A DNA stretch of 64,000 nucleotides from Methylococcales bacterium. GTDB lineage: Bacteria; Pseudomonadota; Gammaproteobacteria; Methylococcales; Methylomonadaceae. Under the pieces are notes generated by a model, which was not told the DNA's origin, searched no databases, and was given only the letters and a program-made list of their open reading frames with translations. Both the position numbers and the translations under genes were made by a program. The DNA lies in NCBI GenBank assembly GCA_026399095.1, contig JAPLRP010000030.1, forward strand, positions 1 through 64,000, in the 5' to 3' direction. Shown here one piece after another: positions 3,461 through 19,455 of the stretch (positions are counted from its first letter, which is position 1; every line of letters begins with the position of its first letter).

Positions 3461-3633
3461 ATCTATTACATATGCAGTCCTTGATTTACCGAGATAGGCA
3501 ATGATTGTGCTGAGGAACATAAAGTCCAACAATTACCGAAAGACAAGCCAGATAGCGTGTGAGAAAAAAAAGACAGGCTTTACTTGTTTGGATTTTATAA
3601 TGCGCTGAATGGCTGTTAATCGCCCATGCGTTT

Positions 3634-3865
3634 GTGCAAATAACACTTTAAACGTATATTAGGCAGTTGTTTAAATTGTCGGAATTATTTGATGGATACT
3701 ATTAGCATTCGTGGTGCCAGAACGCATAACCTGAAAAATATTGATATTGATCTACCCAGAGATAAACTCATCGTTATCACCGGGCTTTCTGGTTCCAGCA
3801 ACTTATTGTTCATTTTTACCTTAATAAAAACCTTTTTGTCGGATTTCAGCTTCGAAAAGTTGTAG
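3634..3865 (+). pseudogene. Truncated duplicate of the uvrA upstream region and 5' end
   Basis: 3634-3796 aligns without gaps to 16581-16743; reads [35 protein letters not shown] then diverges, stop at 3863-3865. Confidence 0.9.
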
Positions 3866-4216
3866 ATATTTTGCTTCCGGAAGTTTTCGTATAGACTCCT
3901 CAAATAAATCAATATCGGCACCAACAACATCAACGGCAAATAAAATCATTAAGCCGCCATCGGCAGCGTCAATAATCAGCGCTTGCAATTTTTCAATATT
4001 ACCGCCTCTCGAGGCTTTAATTAAGGCAAACTCATAGGCGATACGCGGTATTTTTGTAGTGGCTATAATGCATTCAAGGCGCTCCAGATCTGATTCCAGT
4101 AAATCATGAGCAAACCTATAAGCCAGTTCGGCATCACCTGTAAGAATTACCTGCTCTTGTAAATCAGGTGAGAATCCTTGTGTATTGATTAGTTTTAACA
4201 GTTGCAAAGCATTCAT
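3821..4216 (-). CDS. Hypothetical protein
   Basis: 131-aa ORF, close spacing with the upstream YecA-like ORF on the same strand. Confidence 0.6.
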
Positions 4217-4941: not shown

Positions 4942-5619
4942 TCATGCTATTGCCAATAAAGAAGAAATAATATCAAAATAAGCTTCCAGCAAAGCCGATA
5001 ACGTATTGTGATATAAAGCCTGTAAAGTCACTGAAGGTTGCTTCATCAACAAGCTAAATAACTCAGCCAGCACATAATAACCGCTAATTAAAACCGCTTC
5101 AGTCTCTTGAGTCAGTGAGGCAACATAACCGGTTACCGGAGCGAGTACCGATGCCAGCAATTGTTCCGGGTTGTCTAAAAGCAATTGCCAATATCGCTCA
5201 GACTGTACGCCAACTGCTGCCACATAACGAGTCAACGGCTCAATAGTTACCAAGGTCACTTGCTCGGGATTCTCCCCAAAAGCCTGTAAATATTGACCGG
5301 TTGCCTGCTTGCCGGCATTCACCTTGACTTGCCAGTCTTGGTAAACAGGCAACACTGATGCCTGAACCTGAGCATATAAAGTATTGCCGGCATAAGCGGT
5401 TTGTTCGTACCAGGCGGTAAGTGTTTCAAAAGGATGCTCGTAGACCTGTTTGGAAGCGGTTGCCACCACGCTGTGGGCATTAATTAAGCTGTTATGGATA
5501 TCCTGATACAAGGCATTAACTTTAAAACTGATTTGTCTATAGAGTTCTGTTGATGGAAGAATTAGCTTGTTTTTAACATCTAGCTGGCTAATGGTATAAA
5601 AATCCGGTTGATTAAACAT
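4942..5619 (-). CDS. Hypothetical helical protein
   Basis: 225-aa ORF, no family recognised with certainty. Confidence 0.6.
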   Translation of the reverse strand: MFNQPDFYTISQLDVKNKLILPSTELYRQISFKVNALYQDIHNSLINAHSVVATASKQVYEHPFETLTAWYEQTAYAGNTLYAQVQASVLPVYQDWQVKVNAGKQATGQYLQAFGENPEQVTLVTIEPLTRYVAAVGVQSERYWQLLLDNPEQLLASVLAPVTGYVASLTQETEAVLISGYYVLAELFSLLMKQPSVTLQALYHNTLSALLEAYFDIISSLLAIA

Positions 5620-6109: not shown

Positions 6110-6125
6110 TGGCATAGCGATTGCT
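6110..6125 (+). promoter_or_regulatory. Sigma-54 (-24/-12) promoter of the sMMO operon
   Basis: TGGCATagcgaTTGCT, GG-N10-GC spacing, ~120 bp upstream of mmoX. Confidence 0.9.
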
Positions 6126-6243: not shown

Positions 6244-7827
6244 ATGGCTATAAGTTCAGCAACAAAAGCAGCGACGGATGCGCTTGCAGTTAATCGTGCG
6301 CCGGTTAGTGTGGGTGCACAAGAAGTTCATAAATGGATGCAAAGCTTCACTTGGGATTTTGATAAAAATCGAACTAAATATTCGACCAAATACAAAATGG
6401 CCAATGATACCAAAGAACAATTCAAGCTAATCGCTAAAGAATATGCTCGCATGGAATCAGTGAAAGACGAACGTCAATTTGGTAGCTTGCAAGACGTGTT
6501 GACGCGTGTCGATGCTGCTAACCGCGTTCATCCAAAATGGAATGAGTCCATGAAAGTTATTTCCAACTTTCTGGAAGTCGGCGAGTATAACGCGATTGCA
6601 GCAACCGGTATGTTGTGGGATTCTGCTTCTGCACCTGAGCAAAAAAATGGTTATTTGGGTCAGGTGATGGATGAAATTCGTCATACCAACCAATGCGGTT
6701 ATATTAACTATTACTTTGCCAAGCAAGGTCAAGACGCAGCCGGTCATAACGATGCCCGTCGTACCCGTGCAATTGGTCCATTATGGAAAGGCATGAAGCG
6801 TGTATTCTCGGATGGTTTTATTTCCGGTGACGCAGTTGAGTGTTCAATTAACTTACAGTTGGTCGGTGAAGCTTGCTTTACTAACCCATTAATCGTTGCA
6901 GTAACAGAATGGGCTTCTGCTAACGGCGATGAAATGACCCCAACTGTATTCTTGTCTATCGAAACTGACGAACTACGTCACATGGCAAACGGTTATCAAA
7001 CCATTGTTTCTATTGCTAATGACGAAGCAGCTTCAAAATACTTGAACACTGACTTAAACAATGCCTTCTGGACTCAACAAAAATACTTCACACCTGTATT
7101 AGGTATGATGTTTGAGTATGGTTCACATTTTAAAGTTGAGCCTTGGGTAAAAACTTGGAACCGTTGGGTATACGAAGATTGGGGCGGTATTTGGATTGGC
7201 CGTTTAGGCAAATACGGTGTTGAATCACCTGCAAGCTTACGCGATGCTAAGAAAGATGCTTACTGGGCTCATCATGATTTATTCCTGATTGCTTATGCAA
7301 TGTGGCCAACAGGTTTCTTCCGTTTGACTCTGCCGACTGCTGAAGAAGCAGAATGGTATGAAGCAAATTACCCTGGCTGGTATGACATGTACGGCAAAGT
7401 CTATGAAGAATGGCGTGCCCGTGGTTGTGAAGATCCAAACAGCGGTTTCTTACCTCTGCAATGGTTTGCCGAAAACAATCATCCTATCTATATAGATCGC
7501 GTTTCTCAAGTACCTTTCTGCCCTAGCTATTGCAAAGGCGCAAGTACTTTACGTGTTCTTGAATTCAATGGCAAAAAACACTCTTTCAGTGATCCATGGG
7601 GTGAACGCATGTGGTTGTCTGAGCCAGAGCGTTATGAATGCCAAAACATCTTCGAGCAATACGAAGGTCGTGAGTTGTCAGAAGTTATTGCTGAAGGGCA
7701 TGGCGTGCGTAGTGATGGTTTTACCTTGATTGCACAGCCACATACCAGCAAAGACGGTAAGTTGTGGACTTTGGATGATATCAAAAAGATCGGTTGTGTA
7801 TTTGCTGATCCTTTGAAAGCGCTATAG
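6244..7827 (+). CDS. mmoX: Soluble methane monooxygenase hydroxylase alpha subunit
   Basis: 527 aa, di-iron motifs DEIRH and DELRH, MmoX sequence; first gene of mmoXYBZDC. Confidence 0.98.
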   Translation: MAISSATKAATDALAVNRAPVSVGAQEVHKWMQSFTWDFDKNRTKYSTKYKMANDTKEQFKLIAKEYARMESVKDERQFGSLQDVLTRVDAANRVHPKWNESMKVISNFLEVGEYNAIAATGMLWDSASAPEQKNGYLGQVMDEIRHTNQCGYINYYFAKQGQDAAGHNDARRTRAIGPLWKGMKRVFSDGFISGDAVECSINLQLVGEACFTNPLIVAVTEWASANGDEMTPTVFLSIETDELRHMANGYQTIVSIANDEAASKYLNTDLNNAFWTQQKYFTPVLGMMFEYGSHFKVEPWVKTWNRWVYEDWGGIWIGRLGKYGVESPASLRDAKKDAYWAHHDLFLIAYAMWPTGFFRLTLPTAEEAEWYEANYPGWYDMYGKVYEEWRARGCEDPNSGFLPLQWFAENNHPIYIDRVSQVPFCPSYCKGASTLRVLEFNGKKHSFSDPWGERMWLSEPERYECQNIFEQYEGRELSEVIAEGHGVRSDGFTLIAQPHTSKDGKLWTLDDIKKIGCVFADPLKAL

Positions 7828-7944
7828 CCATTAATTATTAATTTGGCATTGTTAGCTTGGTTTTTTAGAATTTTGGACTTGTGACTAAAAAACTGCAAAT
7901 TTTTACCGAACTAGCAATGTCACCTCAATGTATAGGAGTAACTT

Positions 7945-9123
7945 ATGTCAATAGTAGTAACTGGTGGTAGACGCGGTCTAACCGATCCGGACATTGCCGC
8001 AGTAATTTTAGCAGCAATTCCTGACAAACCTTTAGAAACACAACGCAAAATGAATTATTTTATGACGCCGCGCGGTAAGCGGATCAATGAATATGAAACC
8101 TTGTGCTGTTACACACAACCTACGCCAGACTGGATACCAGGTGGTTTGGACTGGGGTGATTGGACTCAAAAATTCCATGGTGGTCGTCCATCTTGGAGTA
8201 ATGAATCTACAGAAATGCAAAGCTCTGACTGGTTAAAACATCGTGATCCAGCATTCCGCTGGCATGCACTATATGTTAAAGATAAAGCTGAAGAATGGCG
8301 TTACACTGACCGTTTCTTGAAAGCTTATTCTGCTGATGGCCATGTACGCTCTATCGATCCAGTATGGCGCGATGAAGTATTAGGCGATTATTTAGGTGCT
8401 TTTGGCTTCAGTGAATATGGCTTATTCAACTCACATTCATCCGTTGTGCGTGATTGCTTAGGCGATACTATTCGTATGAGCTCCGCGATGATCGGCTTGG
8501 ATAAAGTTGATAATGCGCAAATGATTCAAGCTGAAAGAACTTTCTTGTCTAAATTAGTGCCTAGCTTTAATGAATCAACTGACATTCCTAAAAAAGAGTG
8601 GACTCAAGGCGCTATCTTTAAAGGCGCTAGAGAAACTGTAGAACAAATTTGGCAAGATAACTATGACTGGAACGAAATTTTGTTCTCAGGTCACATGGTA
8701 TATGACCCATTATTTGGTCAATTCGTACGTAGAGAGTTCTTTTTAAGATTAGCTTCTTATTATGGTGACAACTTAACACCATTCTTTGTTAATCAAATGC
8801 AATTGTATCATTCACAAACTAAAGGCATTACGACTGACATGTTCCATACCTGTTTGGCTGTTGATCCTGAGTTTAGTGAATACAATATTCGCTTAATGAA
8901 TATCTGGAATGACAAATGGTTACCTAGAACTGTTAATGCACTGAAAGATTTCATGGGTATATTTGCAAAAATTCCTGAAATTAAAGGCGTTAATGACAAA
9001 CCGGCGATTGAAGCGGCTTTAGGTCGTGTATTTGAAGATTGGGAACGTGATTATGCAGCACCTATCGGTTACAAAGTCGATACTGCAGCACTCATTAAAA
9101 CCATTTTAACTGGCCTTAAATAA
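7945..9123 (+). CDS. mmoY: Soluble methane monooxygenase hydroxylase beta subunit
   Basis: 392 aa, RRGLTDPDIAAVILAAIPDKPLETQRKMNYF and operon position. Confidence 0.97.
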   Translation: MSIVVTGGRRGLTDPDIAAVILAAIPDKPLETQRKMNYFMTPRGKRINEYETLCCYTQPTPDWIPGGLDWGDWTQKFHGGRPSWSNESTEMQSSDWLKHRDPAFRWHALYVKDKAEEWRYTDRFLKAYSADGHVRSIDPVWRDEVLGDYLGAFGFSEYGLFNSHSSVVRDCLGDTIRMSSAMIGLDKVDNAQMIQAERTFLSKLVPSFNESTDIPKKEWTQGAIFKGARETVEQIWQDNYDWNEILFSGHMVYDPLFGQFVRREFFLRLASYYGDNLTPFFVNQMQLYHSQTKGITTDMFHTCLAVDPEFSEYNIRLMNIWNDKWLPRTVNALKDFMGIFAKIPEIKGVNDKPAIEAALGRVFEDWERDYAAPIGYKVDTAALIKTILTGLK

Positions 9124-9132
9124 GGAATTATT

Positions 9133-9558
9133 ATGTCTACAAGTGCAAATGCATACAACGCCGGCATCATGGCAAAGTCTGGAAAAGATTTTGCTGATGA
9201 ATACTTCGCAGAAGATAACCAAGTCGTTCATGAAAGTGACACCGTGGTTTTAGTTCTAAAAAAATCAGATGAACTTAACACCGTTGTTGAAGAAATTCTG
9301 TTAGGTTCTGACAAAGCCAATAACCCAACTTTAGTCGTAGAAGATCGCGCTGGTTTTTGGTGGTTGAAAGCAAATGGCAAAATTGAAATTGATTGCCGTG
9401 AAGTCTCTGAGTTATTAGGTAAAAAATACAGTGTTTATGATCTTTTAGTGGACGTTTCTTCTACTATTGGTCGTGCTTATACACTGGATGAAACCTTTAC
9501 TATCACATCAGAACTGATGGGTCTTGATGTCAAACTGAAAGACTTGGAAACAGCATAG
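9133..9558 (+). CDS. mmoB: Methane monooxygenase regulatory protein B
   Basis: 141 aa, NAYNAGIMAKSGKDFADEYFAEDNQVV; operon position. Confidence 0.97.
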   Translation: MSTSANAYNAGIMAKSGKDFADEYFAEDNQVVHESDTVVLVLKKSDELNTVVEEILLGSDKANNPTLVVEDRAGFWWLKANGKIEIDCREVSELLGKKYSVYDLLVDVSSTIGRAYTLDETFTITSELMGLDVKLKDLETA

Positions 9559-9567
9559 GAGATAACA

Positions 9568-10065
9568 ATGGCTAATATTCATGAAAACCCGAATCGTGAT
9601 GCTTGGGTCAAAAAAATTGCAGCTGCTAATACATTGGCGGCAGGGGTTGCATTATTGACTGATTTTCGTGCTAAGCACTTAAGTCCGTTTAAAACTGATT
9701 TTTCTTTGGAACTTGATGGTCAATGGATAGAATTGAAAATCGAGCAAAAAGTGGCGTTGTTAAAATTCAAAGAATTTAGCGACACTCAGATTTTGAACAA
9801 TAACACTTGCGGTACTAATGCACAAATAGTCGCTGACGTAGTGCTTGCAAAAATGGATGCTTGTACTGATATGTACGAAGCTGAAAAAATTCATATCAAC
9901 TTTAGATTGGCTAATAAGCCTCCTGTGATGCCAGTCAATGTCTTCTTGGACACTGATCGAATCTTGGGGACTAAACTGATGGAACTAAGAAACACGGATT
10001 ATTACGCATTACCATTAGAGGAATTGCGTAAAGTGCGTGGTGTTAAAGTTATTACGCTACAGTAA
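9568..10065 (+). CDS. mmoZ: Soluble methane monooxygenase hydroxylase gamma subunit
   Basis: 165 aa, operon position and sequence. Confidence 0.96.
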   Translation: MANIHENPNRDAWVKKIAAANTLAAGVALLTDFRAKHLSPFKTDFSLELDGQWIELKIEQKVALLKFKEFSDTQILNNNTCGTNAQIVADVVLAKMDACTDMYEAEKIHINFRLANKPPVMPVNVFLDTDRILGTKLMELRNTDYYALPLEELRKVRGVKVITLQ

Positions 10066-10136
10066 GTAGTTATATAGTTTGTTCGGGTGTTTATTCTCTT
10101 CATGAATGGGGTTAGGAATAAATACTTAAGCAAAAC

Positions 10137-10167
10137 GCAAAAGCATGGACCTAAACCGTGCTTTTGC
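10137..10167 (+). promoter_or_regulatory. Intercistronic hairpin between mmoZ and mmoD
   Basis: GCAAAAGCATGG-acctaaa-CCGTGCTTTTGC, no strong T-run. Confidence 0.55.
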
Positions 10168-10198
10168 ACTCTTCATTAAAAAACGAATTCTTTAAATT

Positions 10199-10450
10199 AT
10201 GGCACTAGGAATTAATACGGAACTGCATGAACAAAGTGAATATGAACAAAATACGGTAGAAATGACACAACTGTATGACGGTCAGTCTTATACAGCCTTT
10301 ACGGAAGACTTGGAATTTATGTGGCGCTGGACTATTTATAAAGATCATAAGTTGGTACAAGAAGGCTGTTCATTAACATTGGATGCCTCCCGGCGTGCAG
10401 TTAATCAGGTGTTGGCATTCTTTAATGTCCGTATTCAAAATAATAAATAG
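10199..10450 (+). CDS. mmoD: sMMO operon protein MmoD
   Basis: 83 aa between mmoZ and mmoC; YTAFTEDLEFMWRWTIYKDHKLVQEGCSL. Confidence 0.9.
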   Translation: MALGINTELHEQSEYEQNTVEMTQLYDGQSYTAFTEDLEFMWRWTIYKDHKLVQEGCSLTLDASRRAVNQVLAFFNVRIQNNK

Positions 10451-10475: not shown

Positions 10476-11513
10476 ATGGCAAGTACGCACCAAATTACCA
10501 TTATTACACAAGACAAAGAAGAGGTTACTTTTCAGTGTCGATCGGATGAAGATGTTATCAGCGCCGCAGTGCGCCAGGACATTTACTTAATGTCGTCGTG
10601 CCGTGAAGGCGGTTGTGCGACTTGCAAGGGATTTTGCGCTGAAGGTGATTACGTTATGGGTAAGTTTAGTTCCCAGGCTTTGCCTTATGAAGAGGAAGAG
10701 GCGGGTGAAGTTTTACTATGCCGCTGTTTTCCAACAACGGATATTGAAGTCGAAGTTCCCTATACTTTTGACCGAATTTCATTCTCACCCGAAGGGCTGA
10801 TGTTTGAAGCGGAAGTGCTTGAGGTGTCCCAGATATCTATTAACGTCATGAAATTTCAACTGCGACGTACGGGCGATGATAAAACGATTAAATTTGATTC
10901 AGGACAGTTTTTTGATTTGGAGGTACCAGGAACCACGACTACGCGATCCTATTCGCCAGCCAATACAGCCAATAAAAAGGGTGATTTGGAGTTTTTGATT
11001 CGAATAGTTGATGGCGGCAAGTTTTCAACGTATTTGAAAAATGATGCCAAAGTAGGTGGAAAGATAAATGTCAAAGGGCCATCAGGTATTTTTGGATTAA
11101 AAGAAAACGGCTTTACTCCTCGTTATTTCGTTGCCGGTGGTACAGGACTTGCGCCTATATTATCAATGGTACGACGCATGAAAGAATGGGACGAACCGCA
11201 AAAGTGCGTTATTTATTTTGGTGTTAATACCGAAGCAGAAATATTCCATCTGGATGAGTTGAATCAGTTGGCGGCTGAAATGCCCACGCTGGAGTTAAGA
11301 AACTGTGTCTGGAAATGCTCGGATGATTGGCATTGTGAAAAAGGCAGTGTAGTAGATATTCTGCGCAGAGATTTACAAGAAACCGGTGCAAAGCCTGATT
11401 TATACCTCTGCGGACCACCCGGTATGGTTGATGCCACCTTTGCTGTATGTGCGGAAATGGGCATACCCAAGGAAAGAATTTACTTGGAAAAGTTTCTGCC
11501 TAGCGGCTCATAA
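10476..11513 (+). CDS. mmoC: Methane monooxygenase reductase (2Fe-2S/FAD)
   Basis: SSCREGGCATCKGFC ferredoxin motif, RSYSPAN FAD motif, GGTGLAP NAD motif. Confidence 0.97.
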   Translation: MASTHQITIITQDKEEVTFQCRSDEDVISAAVRQDIYLMSSCREGGCATCKGFCAEGDYVMGKFSSQALPYEEEEAGEVLLCRCFPTTDIEVEVPYTFDRISFSPEGLMFEAEVLEVSQISINVMKFQLRRTGDDKTIKFDSGQFFDLEVPGTTTTRSYSPANTANKKGDLEFLIRIVDGGKFSTYLKNDAKVGGKINVKGPSGIFGLKENGFTPRYFVAGGTGLAPILSMVRRMKEWDEPQKCVIYFGVNTEAEIFHLDELNQLAAEMPTLELRNCVWKCSDDWHCEKGSVVDILRRDLQETGAKPDLYLCGPPGMVDATFAVCAEMGIPKERIYLEKFLPSGS

Positions 11514-11522
11514 AGCCTTTTA

Positions 11523-11568
11523 AGAGAGAAGCTATATCTTACCAATTTTGAACAATATAGCCTCTTTT
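11523..11568 (+). terminator. Imperfect hairpin between mmoC and the BLUF gene (possible attenuator)
   Basis: AGAGAAGCTATAT ... ATATAGCCTCTTTT. Confidence 0.4.
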
Positions 11569-11616
11569 CAAAAACTTATAAAAAGCTATAAACCCTAATA
11601 TTAATAGGAGCCAATA

Positions 11617-12042
11617 ATGGCAGTTAATTGTCTAGTATACGTAAGCTTGGCCAATCAAGAGATGTCCGATAAGCATCTACAGGATCTGCTCAAGAAAGCC
11701 AGGGATAAAAATGAAAGTCTGAATATCACGGGCATGTTGCTTTATCGTGATGGTTTTTTTATGCAAGCGCTTGAAGGAGAGCTAAATGATATCGAAAGTT
11801 TATTTGATGTCATTGCAAATGACACGCGGCATCGTGACGTATTGTTAATTTATAAAAAGCCGATTAAGCAACGAGGTTTTCCTGATTGGAAAATGGGTTT
11901 TAATAAAATTGATGACAAAAGCGTAGCAACAATTGATGGCTATACGGATTTTTTAAATAATCCAACACCGGATTTTTTTTTACACCGTGCCAGTGAAGCA
12001 GAGGCGCTTTTGGATCAATTTAAACACCAGTTGTTCTTTTAA
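11617..12042 (+). CDS. BLUF-domain (blue light sensing using FAD) protein
   Basis: LVYVSLANQEMSDKHLQDLLKKARDKNESLNITGMLLYRDGFFMQALEGE...DWKMGF matches the BLUF domain; Tyr, Asn, Gln and Trp/Met key positions appear present. Confidence 0.88.
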   Translation: MAVNCLVYVSLANQEMSDKHLQDLLKKARDKNESLNITGMLLYRDGFFMQALEGELNDIESLFDVIANDTRHRDVLLIYKKPIKQRGFPDWKMGFNKIDDKSVATIDGYTDFLNNPTPDFFLHRASEAEALLDQFKHQLFF

Positions 12043-12084
12043 ATATCGACAAGATTTTAAATTGCAACGTTATTTGAGGTGTTT

Positions 12085-12378
12085 ATGAGGGCTGAAGATG
12101 TTGATTTTCTTTCAGGAATGGTTGTTCAGCTGGATATAACGATTAGAAAGTTAGTGATAGAAGAGCAGGAGTTAATTGTTAAATTGGGCGCTGCCAGAGT
12201 TGAAGAATTAAAAGAATTCTGGAGCCAGGAGTTATCCAGTGAAGAAGATATAGAATTTAAAAGAACTTTGGATTATTGGGAAAAAATCTTGATACGTACT
12301 TGGGCGAGCTTAAGTCGCTCCCATAAGTCTCGCGCACAGGTAGGGCAGGCATTTATGAAATTGAATTCAAAACTTTAA
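12085..12378 (+). CDS. Small hypothetical protein in sMMO cluster
   Basis: MRAEDVDFLSGMVVQLDITIRKLVIEEQEL...; RBS GAGGTG before ATG at 12085. Confidence 0.7.
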   Translation: MRAEDVDFLSGMVVQLDITIRKLVIEEQELIVKLGAARVEELKEFWSQELSSEEDIEFKRTLDYWEKILIRTWASLSRSHKSRAQVGQAFMKLNSKL

Positions 12379-14391: not shown

Positions 14392-14429
14392 AAGGCAATG
14401 CGTCATTATGACGCATTGCCTTTTTTTTT
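14392..14429 (+). terminator. Rho-independent terminator downstream of mmoG
   Basis: AAGGCAATGCGTCAT-t-ATGACGCATTGCC followed by T8. Confidence 0.85.
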
Positions 14430-14528: not shown

Positions 14529-16307
14529 ATGACTCTTGATAATAAAATCCCCAATAAAGTAAGAATAATTCAAGAGGCAATATTAGTTCGACATACCCTA
14601 GAGTTTGAAGTGGATCGGCCTGCCCAAGCTTGGCAATGGATGAATCAAACTCGTTCAATTCCAGATCAAGGCGAGTGGGTAAGAGCAGAGGTGACTGATT
14701 CTTGGCAACGTTGCTTGGATGATTATCTATTGCCTTTGGGTAATTATGCTAATTGGGAAAATCTTCCCAATAGTAATATTGACGTTAATAACGATAATCA
14801 GCTGAGAAATATAGAAGGATTAATAAAACAGTTAAGCCATAATTTCACAGTGTTTCTTAAAGAAGCAGGCGTTATGATGGTATTGACTACGGCTGATGGA
14901 AGGCTTTTGTACGCTTCTGGTGAAAATCATCAACTGAGTTCATTTATGACATGCATGTATGAACCTGGTACACACTGGCATGAGTCGGTTTTAGGTAATA
15001 ACGGTATTGGTACGGCAATCCTGCTTAAAAAGCCGATTGCCTTTCAGGGGATGGAGCATTTTTTAAGTGTATTGCACCCTTACACTACGGTTGGTTATCC
15101 GTTGCTGGATGATGTCGGCGATTTGGTCGCGGTAATAGGTTTGGTCAGCAATCATCATGAATGCATGAATTCGCTGTTTGCGTTTCTCCATTTGATTTGC
15201 GTATTGGTTAATACCGATCTGCCTTTAGCTCAAAATAAAAACGCTCAAGAGCGAGTATTAGAAAAATTTCATTTTCAACCGGCTTTAAGTCAAGCAGATT
15301 GGCAAAACGAATCCAGTATTTCTGAATCCCTCGAATTACTTATTCAAAAAGCTGTAAAACTACAAACGCATAAAATACCTATCTTGATAACAGGCGAGTC
15401 TGGCGTCGGTAAAGATCATTTTGTTAATTTAATCAAACAGGCTGGCCCTAGAAAGGGCCAGCCATTTATTGCTATTAATTGCGCATCAATACCTCGTGAT
15501 TTAATAGAAAGTGAATTGTTTGGCTATGAGGCAGGTAGCTTTACCGGCGCAAGAAGTAATGGCAAGCCGGGTAAATTCAAGTTGGCTGATAAAGGCATTT
15601 TATTTCTGGATGAAATTGGGGATATGAGCTTTGACTTGCAGTCTACTCTGTTGAGAGTGTTGGAAACCTCTGAGTTTACTCCGGTTGGTGGGACTTCACC
15701 TGTTCGTGTCGATGTACAAGTTGTAGCGGCAACTAATGTTCAATTAATTGAGGCCGTTGAGGCGGGACGTTTTCGACGTGATCTTTATTATCGACTCAAT
15801 GGCGCACAAATCCATCTTCTGCCATTACGTGAGCAGCCTGATAAAAAAACTATCATTCATCATATTTTGCAACGTGAATTGAAAGCGATTTCTGTCACAG
15901 AAACTTATGAGATTTGTCCGGACGTTATTAGCTTGATTGAAAGGCATCCCTGGCCGGGCAATATTCGACAATTGATTAATGTGATTAGATCCACCCTTTA
16001 TAGCGCGAGTAGTGCCTTTATAAGTATCCAGGATTTGCCGCTGGATTTTATGGCTGAACTCAGGTTGATTGAAGACGATTGGTTGTCGGCTGACAATATT
16101 CAATCAATAATGACAATACCGTTAGCGCCTGACGAGTCGATTAAGAGCTTATCAAATTGGGAGTTACATGGCATAAAAACAGCATTAAAGGAATCTGAAG
16201 GTAATATTACTGTGGCGGCTAAAAGATTAGGTATAACTCGGTCGACGCTTTATAAAAAACTTGATTATTTCAGGTTGGATAAAATGGGTGAAGGAATATT
16301 GGCATAA
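14529..16307 (+). CDS. mmoR: Sigma-54-dependent transcriptional activator MmoR (AcoR-like, GAF + AAA + HTH)
   Basis: GESGVGKDHF Walker A, ELFGYEAGSFTGA, FLDEIGDM, C-terminal Fis HTH; adjacent to mmoG. Confidence 0.9.
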   Translation: MTLDNKIPNKVRIIQEAILVRHTLEFEVDRPAQAWQWMNQTRSIPDQGEWVRAEVTDSWQRCLDDYLLPLGNYANWENLPNSNIDVNNDNQLRNIEGLIKQLSHNFTVFLKEAGVMMVLTTADGRLLYASGENHQLSSFMTCMYEPGTHWHESVLGNNGIGTAILLKKPIAFQGMEHFLSVLHPYTTVGYPLLDDVGDLVAVIGLVSNHHECMNSLFAFLHLICVLVNTDLPLAQNKNAQERVLEKFHFQPALSQADWQNESSISESLELLIQKAVKLQTHKIPILITGESGVGKDHFVNLIKQAGPRKGQPFIAINCASIPRDLIESELFGYEAGSFTGARSNGKPGKFKLADKGILFLDEIGDMSFDLQSTLLRVLETSEFTPVGGTSPVRVDVQVVAATNVQLIEAVEAGRFRRDLYYRLNGAQIHLLPLREQPDKKTIIHHILQRELKAISVTETYEICPDVISLIERHPWPGNIRQLINVIRSTLYSASSAFISIQDLPLDFMAELRLIEDDWLSADNIQSIMTIPLAPDESIKSLSNWELHGIKTALKESEGNITVAAKRLGITRSTLYKKLDYFRLDKMGEGILA

Positions 16308-16638
16308 AGAAATCCAAGGAACGTATTTTATTTTGCTGTGTAAGAATAGCTTTTTAATGTTTTTTTTTTGAGCTTTTGAATTTATATTTTTAGGAGATAT
16401 AAATACGAATAATCAAGGTTGGGTTAGTGAAATAACCACAGAAAATTCTTTATAACTTTTGTGGTGCGTGTATCGGTAAACTCTTATTTGTAACTAGCAG
16501 TATAAAAAATACTCAACCCACCTGGGTAGCAATATATAGCTTGATGTTTTCCTTATATATTTGTTATCAGTCTTGTGATTGTGCTAATGCCACTTTGAAC
16601 GTATATTAGGCCGTTATTTAAATTGCCGGAATTATTTG

Positions 16639-19455
16639 ATGGATACTATTAGCATTCGTGGTGCCAGAACGCATAACCTGAAAAATATTGATATTGATCT
16701 ACCCAGAGATAAACTGATTGTTATCACCGGGCTTTCTGGTTCCGGTAAGTCATCACTGGCTTTTGATACTATTTATGCCGAAGGTCAGCGGCGCTACGTA
16801 GAATCCCTTTCTGCTTATGCGCGTCAGTTTTTAGCCATCATGGAAAAGCCGGATGTTGATCATATAGAAGGACTGTCGCCTGCTATTTCCATTGAGCAAA
16901 AATCGACTTCACATAATCCTCGATCAACCGTTGGTACCATTACCGAAATTTATGATTATTTAAGGCTGTTATATGCACGGGCAGGTACGCCTCGTTGCCC
17001 TGAACATCATGTTTCATTGGAAGCGCAAACGATCAGTCAGATGGTTGATCATATGCTTTCGCAACCACAAGATCAACGCTGGATGTTATTGGCGCCGGTT
17101 GTTAATGAGCGTAAGGGGGAGCATAGTCAGTTGCTGGATGATCTGCGTGCCCAAGGCTTTATCCGTGCCCGTATTGATGGGGTGGTTTATGATTTGGATG
17201 ATGCGCCGGCTTTGGATTTAAAAAAGAAACACACCGTTGAAGTGGTGGTTGATCGTTTTAAAATCCGTAATGATCTTGCTTTACGGTTGGCAGAGTCTTT
17301 TGAAACCGCGCTTCGGATTGCTGATGGAATTGCCATTGCTGCCTGTCTTGAAGATGCAACGGAGTTGGTTTTTTCTGAGCGGTATGCCTGCAAGCAATGT
17401 GGTTATAGTTTAACCGAGCTGGAACCGCGCATTTTTTCTTTTAATAATCCTAAAGGTGCTTGTAGTAGTTGTGATGGTTTAGGTGTCAGGCAGCATTTTG
17501 ATGCTGATCTTATTGTGCATAATCCGGACATTAGTCTTGCCGGGGGGGCTATTCGAGGCTGGGATAGACGCAATGCTTATTATTATCAAATGATTTGTTC
17601 GTTGGCCGAGCATTACGGCTTTGATCTGGAGGTGCCTTTTTCTGAACTCTCTAAAGCCGCTCAAGATATTGTGCTTTATGGCAGTGGAAATACGGCCATT
17701 GAGTTTAAGTTTATGACCGGAACGGGGTCTGTAAAGAAAAAGAAACACCGTTTTGAAGGGATTATTGCCAATATGGAACGGCGCTATCATGAGACCGATT
17801 CACAGATGGTGCGTGATGAGCTGGCGAAATATAGATCGCATCGACCCTGTAATGTATGCGATGGCGCGCGGCTTAATGTGGCGGCCCGAAATGTTTTTAT
17901 TGACGAGTTTCCCATTCATCAATTGACTCATTTGCCTATTCGCAAGTCGTTGGTCTTTTTTGAGACCTTATGTTTGCCGGGGCAGCGTGGTGAAATTTCA
18001 GTAAAAATAATTAAAGAAATCAAGGAGCGACTGGAGTTTTTGGTTAATGTCGGACTGGATTATTTAACGCTGGATCGAAGTGCAGATACACTCTCGGGCG
18101 GTGAAGCGCAGCGTATTCGGCTTGCGAGCCAGATTGGTGCCGGTTTGGTGGGTGTCATGTATGTGTTGGATGAGCCCTCTATTGGCTTGCATCAACGTGA
18201 TAATGATCGCTTACTTAAAACGTTATTTCATCTGCGTGACTTGGGCAATACGGTTATTGTGGTAGAGCATGATGAAGACGCCATACGGGCAGCTCAACAT
18301 ATTGTTGATATTGGTCCCGGTGCCGGTGTTCATGGTGGTCGTATTATTGCCCAAGGTACCTTGGACGATATCCTTAACAGTGAAGAGTCATTAACCGGGC
18401 AATATTTATCGGGTAAAGTGAGTATTGAAATTCCGGCATCTTTAACACCGGTTGATAAAGATAAGTTAATAACGGTTCGTAATGCTTATGGAAACAATTT
18501 AAAGAATGTGGATATTTCTTTTCCTGTTGGTTTGTTGACTTGTGTGACCGGTGTGTCGGGTTCCGGTAAGTCGACGTTGGTTAACGATACCTTATATGCT
18601 TATGCGGCTCGTTTAATTAATCGTGCCGGTATTATTCCTGCACCTTGTGATGGGGTTGAAGGACTGGAGCATTTTGATAAAGTCGTTGATATTGATCAAA
18701 GCCCGATAGGTCGAACACCTCGTTCTAATCCGGCTACTTACACGGGTTTATTTACGCCGATACGTGAACTTTTTTCAGCGACTCATGAGGCTCGTTCGCG
18801 GGGGTATAGTGTCGGACGTTTTAGTTTTAATGTGAAAGGGGGGCGCTGCGAGGCTTGTAAAGGGGATGGTGTTATAAAGGTTGAAATGCACTTTCTGCCG
18901 GATATTTTTGTTCATTGCGACGCTTGTAACGGCAAACGTTATAACCGCGAAACCTTAGAAATACGCTATAAAGGTAAAACCATTAATCAGGTGCTGGATA
19001 TGACGGTAGAAGACGCGGCTGAATTTTTTAGTGCGGTACCAACCTTGGCCAGAAAGTTACATACGCTCACTGAGGTCGGTTTAAGTTATATCACCTTGGG
19101 GCAAAACGCGACGACTCTATCGGGTGGTGAAGCGCAGCGGGTGAAATTGGCTAAAGAGCTTTCTAAACGAGATACGGGTAAGACCTTGTATATTTTGGAT
19201 GAGCCGACGACCGGTTTACATTTTCATGACATAAAACAATTATTGGGTGTTTTACATACTCTGCGAGATCACGGTAATACGGTGATTGTTATCGAGCATA
19301 ATCTGGATGTGATTAAAACAGCAGATTGGCTGATTGATATGGGGCCGGAAGGCGGTGATGGCGGCGGTACTTTGGTTGCCGAAGGTTCTCCTAAAGCCGT
19401 TTCTGAAAATGCAGCTTCGTATACGGGGCACTATTTAAAGCGGTTTTTTGAATAA
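16639..19455 (+). CDS. uvrA: Excinuclease ABC subunit A
   Basis: [44 protein letters not shown]; two ABC modules, zinc-finger CxxC motifs. Confidence 0.98.

What the first reader, a model, noticed from the sequence alone, without database searches (positions are those of the whole stretch)
11617..12042. BLUF photoreceptor-like gene inside the sMMO gene cluster
A complete BLUF domain is encoded between mmoC and mmoG on the same strand. It keeps the Tyr near the N-terminus, Asn before ITGMLLY, Gln in FFMQALEG and DWKMGF, the residues known to matter for the flavin photocycle. BLUF proteins (AppA, PixD, YcgF types) control gene expression or enzyme activity through partner proteins. I know of no described role for blue light in sMMO control. 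Inference: light or flavin/redox state could tune sMMO expression or MmoR/MmoG activity.
Basis: partly seen in the sequence, partly recalled or inferred. Interest (0 to 1): 0.82.

Follow-up and report, generated by a model that had tools for sequence, protein, structure and literature searches.

The report
Blue-light sensor in methane-oxidation gene cluster
About a third of the soluble methane monooxygenase gene clusters of one bacterial family carry, always in the same place, an intact gene for a blue-light sensing protein, which suggests that these methane-eating bacteria adjust this enzyme to light; that could be tested directly in a cultured strain.

Summary
Window 11617-12042 (+) encodes a complete 141-aa, single-domain BLUF protein (Pfam E 9e-31) inside an sMMO cluster ordered mmoXYBZDC-BLUF-mmoE-mmoG-mmoR. 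It is the only BLUF domain found in this 98%-complete genome. The predicted fold matches short BLUF photoreceptors (PixD, BlsA). Among 71 Methylococcales sMMO loci, BLUF is intact in 20, a decayed remnant in 2 and absent in 49, always between mmoC and mmoE. It occurs only in the window's own family (20 of 59) and in none of 12 Methylococcus-type clusters, some of which carry the MmoQ/MmoS sensor pair instead. dN/dS of 0.05-0.10 shows purifying selection; the pattern fits one ancestral insertion and repeated loss. M. buryatense 5G carries it. No held paper links BLUF to methane monooxygenase. Best reading: an optional blue-light input to sMMO production through a cluster-encoded partner (MmoR, MmoE or MmoG). 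Photochemistry, partner and direction of the effect are inferred, not shown.

The parts
11617..12042 (+). short BLUF photoreceptor gene, 141 aa (BLUF domain residues 5-94 plus a C-terminal helical extension)
12085..12378 (+). mmoE/ORF1, 97 aa helical protein (GTG start at 12079 also possible; matches in relatives begin at the ATG); present between mmoC and mmoG in all surveyed clusters with or without BLUF
   Evidence: naming after PMC9324122
12399..14084 (+). mmoG, GroEL-like chaperonin
14392..14422 (+). strong terminator-like hairpin with T tract between mmoG and mmoR, found again in other loci; sets mmoR apart from the BLUF-mmoE-mmoG unit
14529..16307 (+). mmoR, sigma-54-dependent activator
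10476..11513 (+). mmoC, FAD/2Fe-2S reductase
11523..11571 (+). hairpin with T-rich 3' side between mmoC and BLUF; hairpins of unrelated sequence lie here in most BLUF-bearing loci and in some Methylomonas-type loci without BLUF (possible attenuator or 3' stabiliser)
6244..10450 (+). mmoX, mmoY, mmoB, mmoZ, mmoD
6110..6124 (+). sigma-54 -24/-12-like site (TGGCATAGCGATTGC) 120 bp before mmoX; the pattern is weakly specific and none lies just before BLUF

Best explanation
The gene encodes a functional short BLUF photoreceptor (PixD/BlsA type) that is an optional accessory of the sMMO cluster of Methylomonadaceae. It binds FAD, and blue light rearranges the Tyr8-Gln50-flavin hydrogen bonds and the Trp91/Met93 segment, which changes how its C-terminal extension binds a partner. 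It lies in a compact unit with mmoE and mmoG, ahead of a terminator and mmoR, so it should be made together with the sMMO assembly genes. The most likely output is control of sMMO production through a protein encoded in the same cluster: MmoR first, MmoE or MmoG next. The probable direction is permissive in the dark and damped in blue light, giving light a say on top of the copper switch. Shown here: identity, residues, fold, synteny, conservation, selection, repeated loss. Inferred: photochemistry, partner, direction, ecological role.
For: BLUF family match and solved relatives. Y8, N32, Q50, W91, M93 and R71 invariant in 22 proteins. AlphaFold model pLDDT 85; best PDB matches Tll0078/TePixD at E about 5e-12, with Slr1694 and BlsA also matched. 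Same slot between mmoC and mmoE in 20 loci, including Methylobacter psychrophilus, Crenothrix sp. D3, M. buryatense 5G and a Methyloprofundus MAG. dN/dS 0.05-0.10 in all pairs that could be computed but one mosaic pair, similar to mmoG and mmoR. The sMMO-linked BLUFs form one clade with a few displaced copies, and of all Methylococcales hits at 60% identity or more nearly all are in sMMO clusters. In the own genome it is the only BLUF domain. Short gaps to mmoE (42 nt) and from mmoE to mmoG (20 nt), then a strong terminator. Precedent: short BLUF proteins act through partners, e.g. BlsA binds the regulator Fur in the dark and antagonises it (PMC5955987). Light inhibition of lake methanotrophy is cited in PMC8748455.
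Against: Most sMMO clusters lack BLUF (49 of 71) and two carry remnants, so it is dispensable for sMMO. G296 holds one sMMO cluster with BLUF and one without, and G146 holds both kinds on separate contigs. mmoE, mmoG and mmoR are present regardless, so none is a dedicated BLUF partner. Covariation with MmoR is not significant (p 0.056 before correction for nine proteins). The BLUF-MmoE read-through model shows no confident interface. Sister BLUF genes (48-54% identity) outside sMMO loci keep a similar C-terminal tail, so that tail is not sMMO-specific.
Confidence: 0.5

Rival explanations
1. Real photoreceptor but a passenger: it became lodged in the sMMO island and regulates something unrelated elsewhere in the cell; the cluster is only its address and its expression schedule.
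For: Patchy presence with remnants. Related BLUFs live outside sMMO loci, e.g. L065, L066 and L067 at about 60-63% identity. The sMMO region of the window is flanked by a 180-bp uvrA repeat, as if acquired as a block.
Against: Exactly one slot (mmoC-BLUF-mmoE) kept across genera, low dN/dS, and a subfamily that is nearly confined to sMMO clusters.
Confidence: 0.25
2. The BLUF protein acts after transcription: it binds MmoE or the chaperonin MmoG, or the flavoenzyme MmoC, and modulates assembly or activity of sMMO in light.
For: Gene order BLUF-mmoE-mmoG with short gaps and a terminator before mmoR groups it with the assembly genes. In two BLUF-less Methylobacter-type clusters (L095, L155) a second mmoE copy lies in the mmoC-mmoG interval.
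Against: mmoE and mmoG do not depend on BLUF. The read-through model gave no confident interface. No mmoE column is associated with BLUF presence at the threshold used.
Confidence: 0.2
3. The domain is used mainly as a flavin redox or temperature sensor rather than a light sensor, playing the part that MmoS/MmoQ plays in Methylococcus.
For: MmoQ/MmoS-like genes were found only in Methylococcus-type clusters, none of which has BLUF. Light effects of BlsA depend on temperature (PMC5955987). That MmoS carries FAD as a redox sensor is my own knowledge.
Against: The residues that matter for the light reaction are all kept. Many clusters lack both BLUF and MmoQ/S, so they do not simply replace each other.
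Confidence: 0.05

Closest known systems
PixD (Slr1694 / Tll0078), short BLUF of cyanobacteria
   Same: Single BLUF domain with C-terminal helices, same fold (Foldseek E about 5e-12, TM about 0.78) and same photocycle residues
   Different: About 25-31% identity; PixD works with PixE in phototaxis; no sMMO context
BlsA of Acinetobacter (short BLUF)
   Same: Single-domain BLUF acting without a fused effector; matched by sequence and fold; known to bind and antagonise the regulator Fur in the dark
   Different: Not known to lie in the operon it controls (own knowledge); different C-terminal sequence
OaPAC / bPAC BLUF domains
   Same: Best sequence matches among solved proteins
   Different: They are fused to an adenylate cyclase; here no effector domain is present
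MmoQ/MmoS of Methylococcus-type sMMO clusters
   Same: Additional sensory input encoded in an sMMO cluster
   Different: Two-component PAS/histidine kinase proteins, found here only in clusters without BLUF; not homologous

Membership tests
BLUF domain (PF04940) | match above the curated cut-off over the whole domain | tested here: met
   106 bits against 25, profile positions 3-92 of 92
BLUF domain (PF04940) | photocycle residues Tyr, Asn, Gln and the Trp/Met segment | tested here: met
   Y8, N32, Q50, W91, M93 invariant in 22 sequences and aligned with OaPAC
BLUF domain (PF04940) | ferredoxin-like BLUF fold | tested here: met
   model pLDDT 85.4; PDB matches are BLUF proteins
BLUF domain (PF04940) | flavin binding and a roughly 10-nm red shift in blue light | not testable with these tools
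   needs purified protein
short BLUF (PixD/BlsA type) | no covalently linked effector domain, C-terminal helical extension | tested here: met
   141 aa, stop at 12042, helices after residue 100
short BLUF (PixD/BlsA type) | light-dependent binding of a partner protein | tested here: inconclusive
   no confident interface in the BLUF-MmoE read-through model; MmoR covariation p 0.056 before correction
component of the sMMO gene cluster | conserved position in independent sMMO clusters | tested here: met
   20 of 71 loci, always mmoC-BLUF-mmoE
component of the sMMO gene cluster | required in every sMMO cluster | tested here: not met
   49 loci without it and 2 with remnants
MmoQ/MmoS sensor pair | homologues within the window's cluster | tested here: not met
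   among the fetched sMMO loci found only in Methylococcus-type ones; in the window mmoR is followed by uvrA

The most novel reading that the evidence does not exclude
In many freshwater Methylomonadaceae the soluble methane monooxygenase is under direct blue-light control by a dedicated BLUF photoreceptor encoded inside its own operon, acting through MmoR or the MmoE/MmoG assembly proteins. This would supply a genetic basis for part of the light inhibition of methane oxidation seen in lakes.
Probability: 0.35. Interest if true: 0.85.

Novelty: new variant of a known kind. Interest (0 to 1): 0.7.

Why it matters
sMMO regulation is described almost wholly in terms of copper. A conserved photoreceptor inside the operon would add light as a signal. 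It would connect a genetic element with reports that light suppresses methanotrophy in lakes (cited in PMC8748455), and it is testable in the cultured M. buryatense 5G, which carries the gene. If the light effect is real it bears on methane budgets of lit waters and offers a natural light switch for methane biotechnology.

Tried and rejected
Literature: searches for BLUF with methane monooxygenase (no paper), BLUF with methanotroph (11 papers whose titles and abstracts show no link), sensors of blue light with Methylobacter (none), blue light with methane oxidation (the two papers opened, mention only gel illumination) and photoreceptor terms gave nothing on this gene. The library holds open-licence papers only, so absence is not proof. 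Partner search: a BLUF-MmoE read-through model (pTM 0.51, linker below 50 pLDDT) was uninformative. The scan for residues associated with BLUF presence put MmoR first (14 of 638 tests; simulated traits reach that in 5.6%), which is not significant after correction for nine proteins. A private sigma-54 promoter before BLUF was not found, and the sigma-70-like site counts do not exceed chance. The hairpin before BLUF was rejected as a BLUF-specific element, because Methylomonas-type loci without BLUF also have strong hairpins there and three BLUF loci have none. Viral contigs hold no relative. Mutual replacement of BLUF and MmoQ/S was rejected because many clusters lack both.

Full report
Observation. 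The ORF at 11617-12042 (+) is a complete 141-aa protein with one BLUF domain. It aligns with solved BLUF proteins from cyanobacteria, Acinetobacter, Rhodobacter and photoactivated cyclases. It is preceded by a Shine-Dalgarno-like AGGAG and followed after 42 nt by a 97-aa ORF, then mmoG and mmoR. MmoX, MmoC, MmoG and MmoR match their expected Pfam families, and MmoD matches its NCBIfam equivalog. The genome also has one pmoA match, so it carries both methane monooxygenases, and it has no second BLUF domain.

Residues and fold. In 22 relatives Y8, N32, Q50, W91, M93 and R71 are invariant. The AlphaFold model (pLDDT 85.4) matches PixD proteins best, with BlsA and AppA also matched. The protein is therefore a short BLUF without an effector domain, the kind that works through a separate partner; BlsA binding Fur in the dark is a studied precedent (PMC5955987).

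Distribution. A search of 311 Methylococcales genomes found MmoX in 67. I fetched the clusters and compared gene order, adding loci found through BLUF itself. Of 71 loci in the concatenated tree, 20 have BLUF (one, L068, cut by a contig end), 2 have remnants and 49 have none. All 12 Methylococcus-type clusters lack it; within the window's family 20 of 59 have it. It always sits between mmoC and the 97-aa gene. That gene is present between mmoC and mmoG in every surveyed cluster and corresponds to ORF1/MmoE of Methylomonas methanica MC09 (PMC9324122); this equation rests on position, size and helical make-up. Locus L096 keeps the first 28 or so residues fused to the last 16 or so, and L110 keeps only the 26 C-terminal residues. 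These are decayed copies, direct evidence of loss. Label changes on the tree number 11-12. Because the position is always the same, the sMMO-linked BLUFs fall in one clade (81/88 support, with a few displaced copies) and the closer groupings mostly agree with the sMMO tree (L106 is an exception), I infer one insertion early in the family and many losses. The tree itself cannot separate gain from loss.

Selection. dN/dS of BLUF between close pairs is 0.05-0.10, in the range of mmoG and mmoR. The exception, 0.30 between L100 and L103, reflects a mosaic gene in Crenothrix-type loci whose C-terminal half was exchanged.

Surroundings. BLUF, mmoE and mmoG are closely spaced, and a strong hairpin with a T tract follows mmoG at 14392-14422. 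Near-identical hairpins are found in several other loci with and without BLUF. A sigma-54-like site lies before mmoX. Hairpins of differing sequence lie between mmoC and BLUF in most BLUF loci, but also before mmoE in Methylomonas-type loci, so they are not BLUF-specific.

Mechanism. The evidence shows a maintained photoreceptor gene that lies with the sMMO assembly genes in some lineages. The step to light control of sMMO is inference. MmoR is the preferred partner on functional grounds: it is the transcriptional activator of the cluster, and mutants in mmoR and mmoG were reported to lose mmo transcription (PMC7994243). Residue association gave MmoR the largest excess, but only at p 0.056 before correction. 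MmoE and MmoG are favoured by gene order. A fused BLUF-MmoE model was not informative. MmoQ/MmoS-like genes occur only in Methylococcus-type clusters, so the family that carries BLUF lacks that sensor pair near its sMMO genes. The expected direction, less sMMO in blue light, is borrowed from BlsA/AppA logic and from light inhibition of lake methanotrophy as cited in PMC8748455.

Known or new. BLUF proteins are well known; a BLUF gene as a recurrent part of an sMMO cluster was not found in any held paper. I rate it a new variant of a known kind.

Noticed in passing
window 3627-3806 and 16574-16753: A 180-bp direct repeat (92% identical) made of the uvrA start and its upstream region flanks the sMMO region; the left copy is a truncated uvrA. 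It looks like acquisition of the sMMO block by recombination next to uvrA.
   Followed up: partly
window 4942-5619 (-): A 225-aa gene divergent from mmoX is kept in the same position (54-84% identity) at many sMMO loci with or without BLUF; no NCBIfam match.
   Followed up: partly
L095 6177-6802 and L155 4959-5779 (mmoX-direction coordinates): Two BLUF-less Methylobacter-type clusters carry two copies of mmoE between mmoC and mmoG.
   Followed up: partly
L100/L104 versus L103/L056: Crenothrix-type BLUF genes share the first 70 or so residues but differ in the C-terminal part, where L103/L056 resemble the M. buryatense type: a mosaic gene.
   Followed up: partly
L055 15114-15536: A second BLUF gene (64% identical to the window's) lies directly behind mmoR in the Lac Pavin MAG.
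   Followed up: partly
window 14392-14422: Hairpin AAGGCAATGCGTCATTATGACGCATTGCCTT plus T tract between mmoG and mmoR; close variants recur in several sMMO loci.
   Followed up: partly
L065 9222-9656 and window 3821-4216 (-): A protein beside a stand-alone BLUF in a Methylophilaceae MAG looks by eye like the 131-aa protein upstream of mmoX in the window; homologues of the latter also follow mmoR in L150/L151.
   Followed up: no
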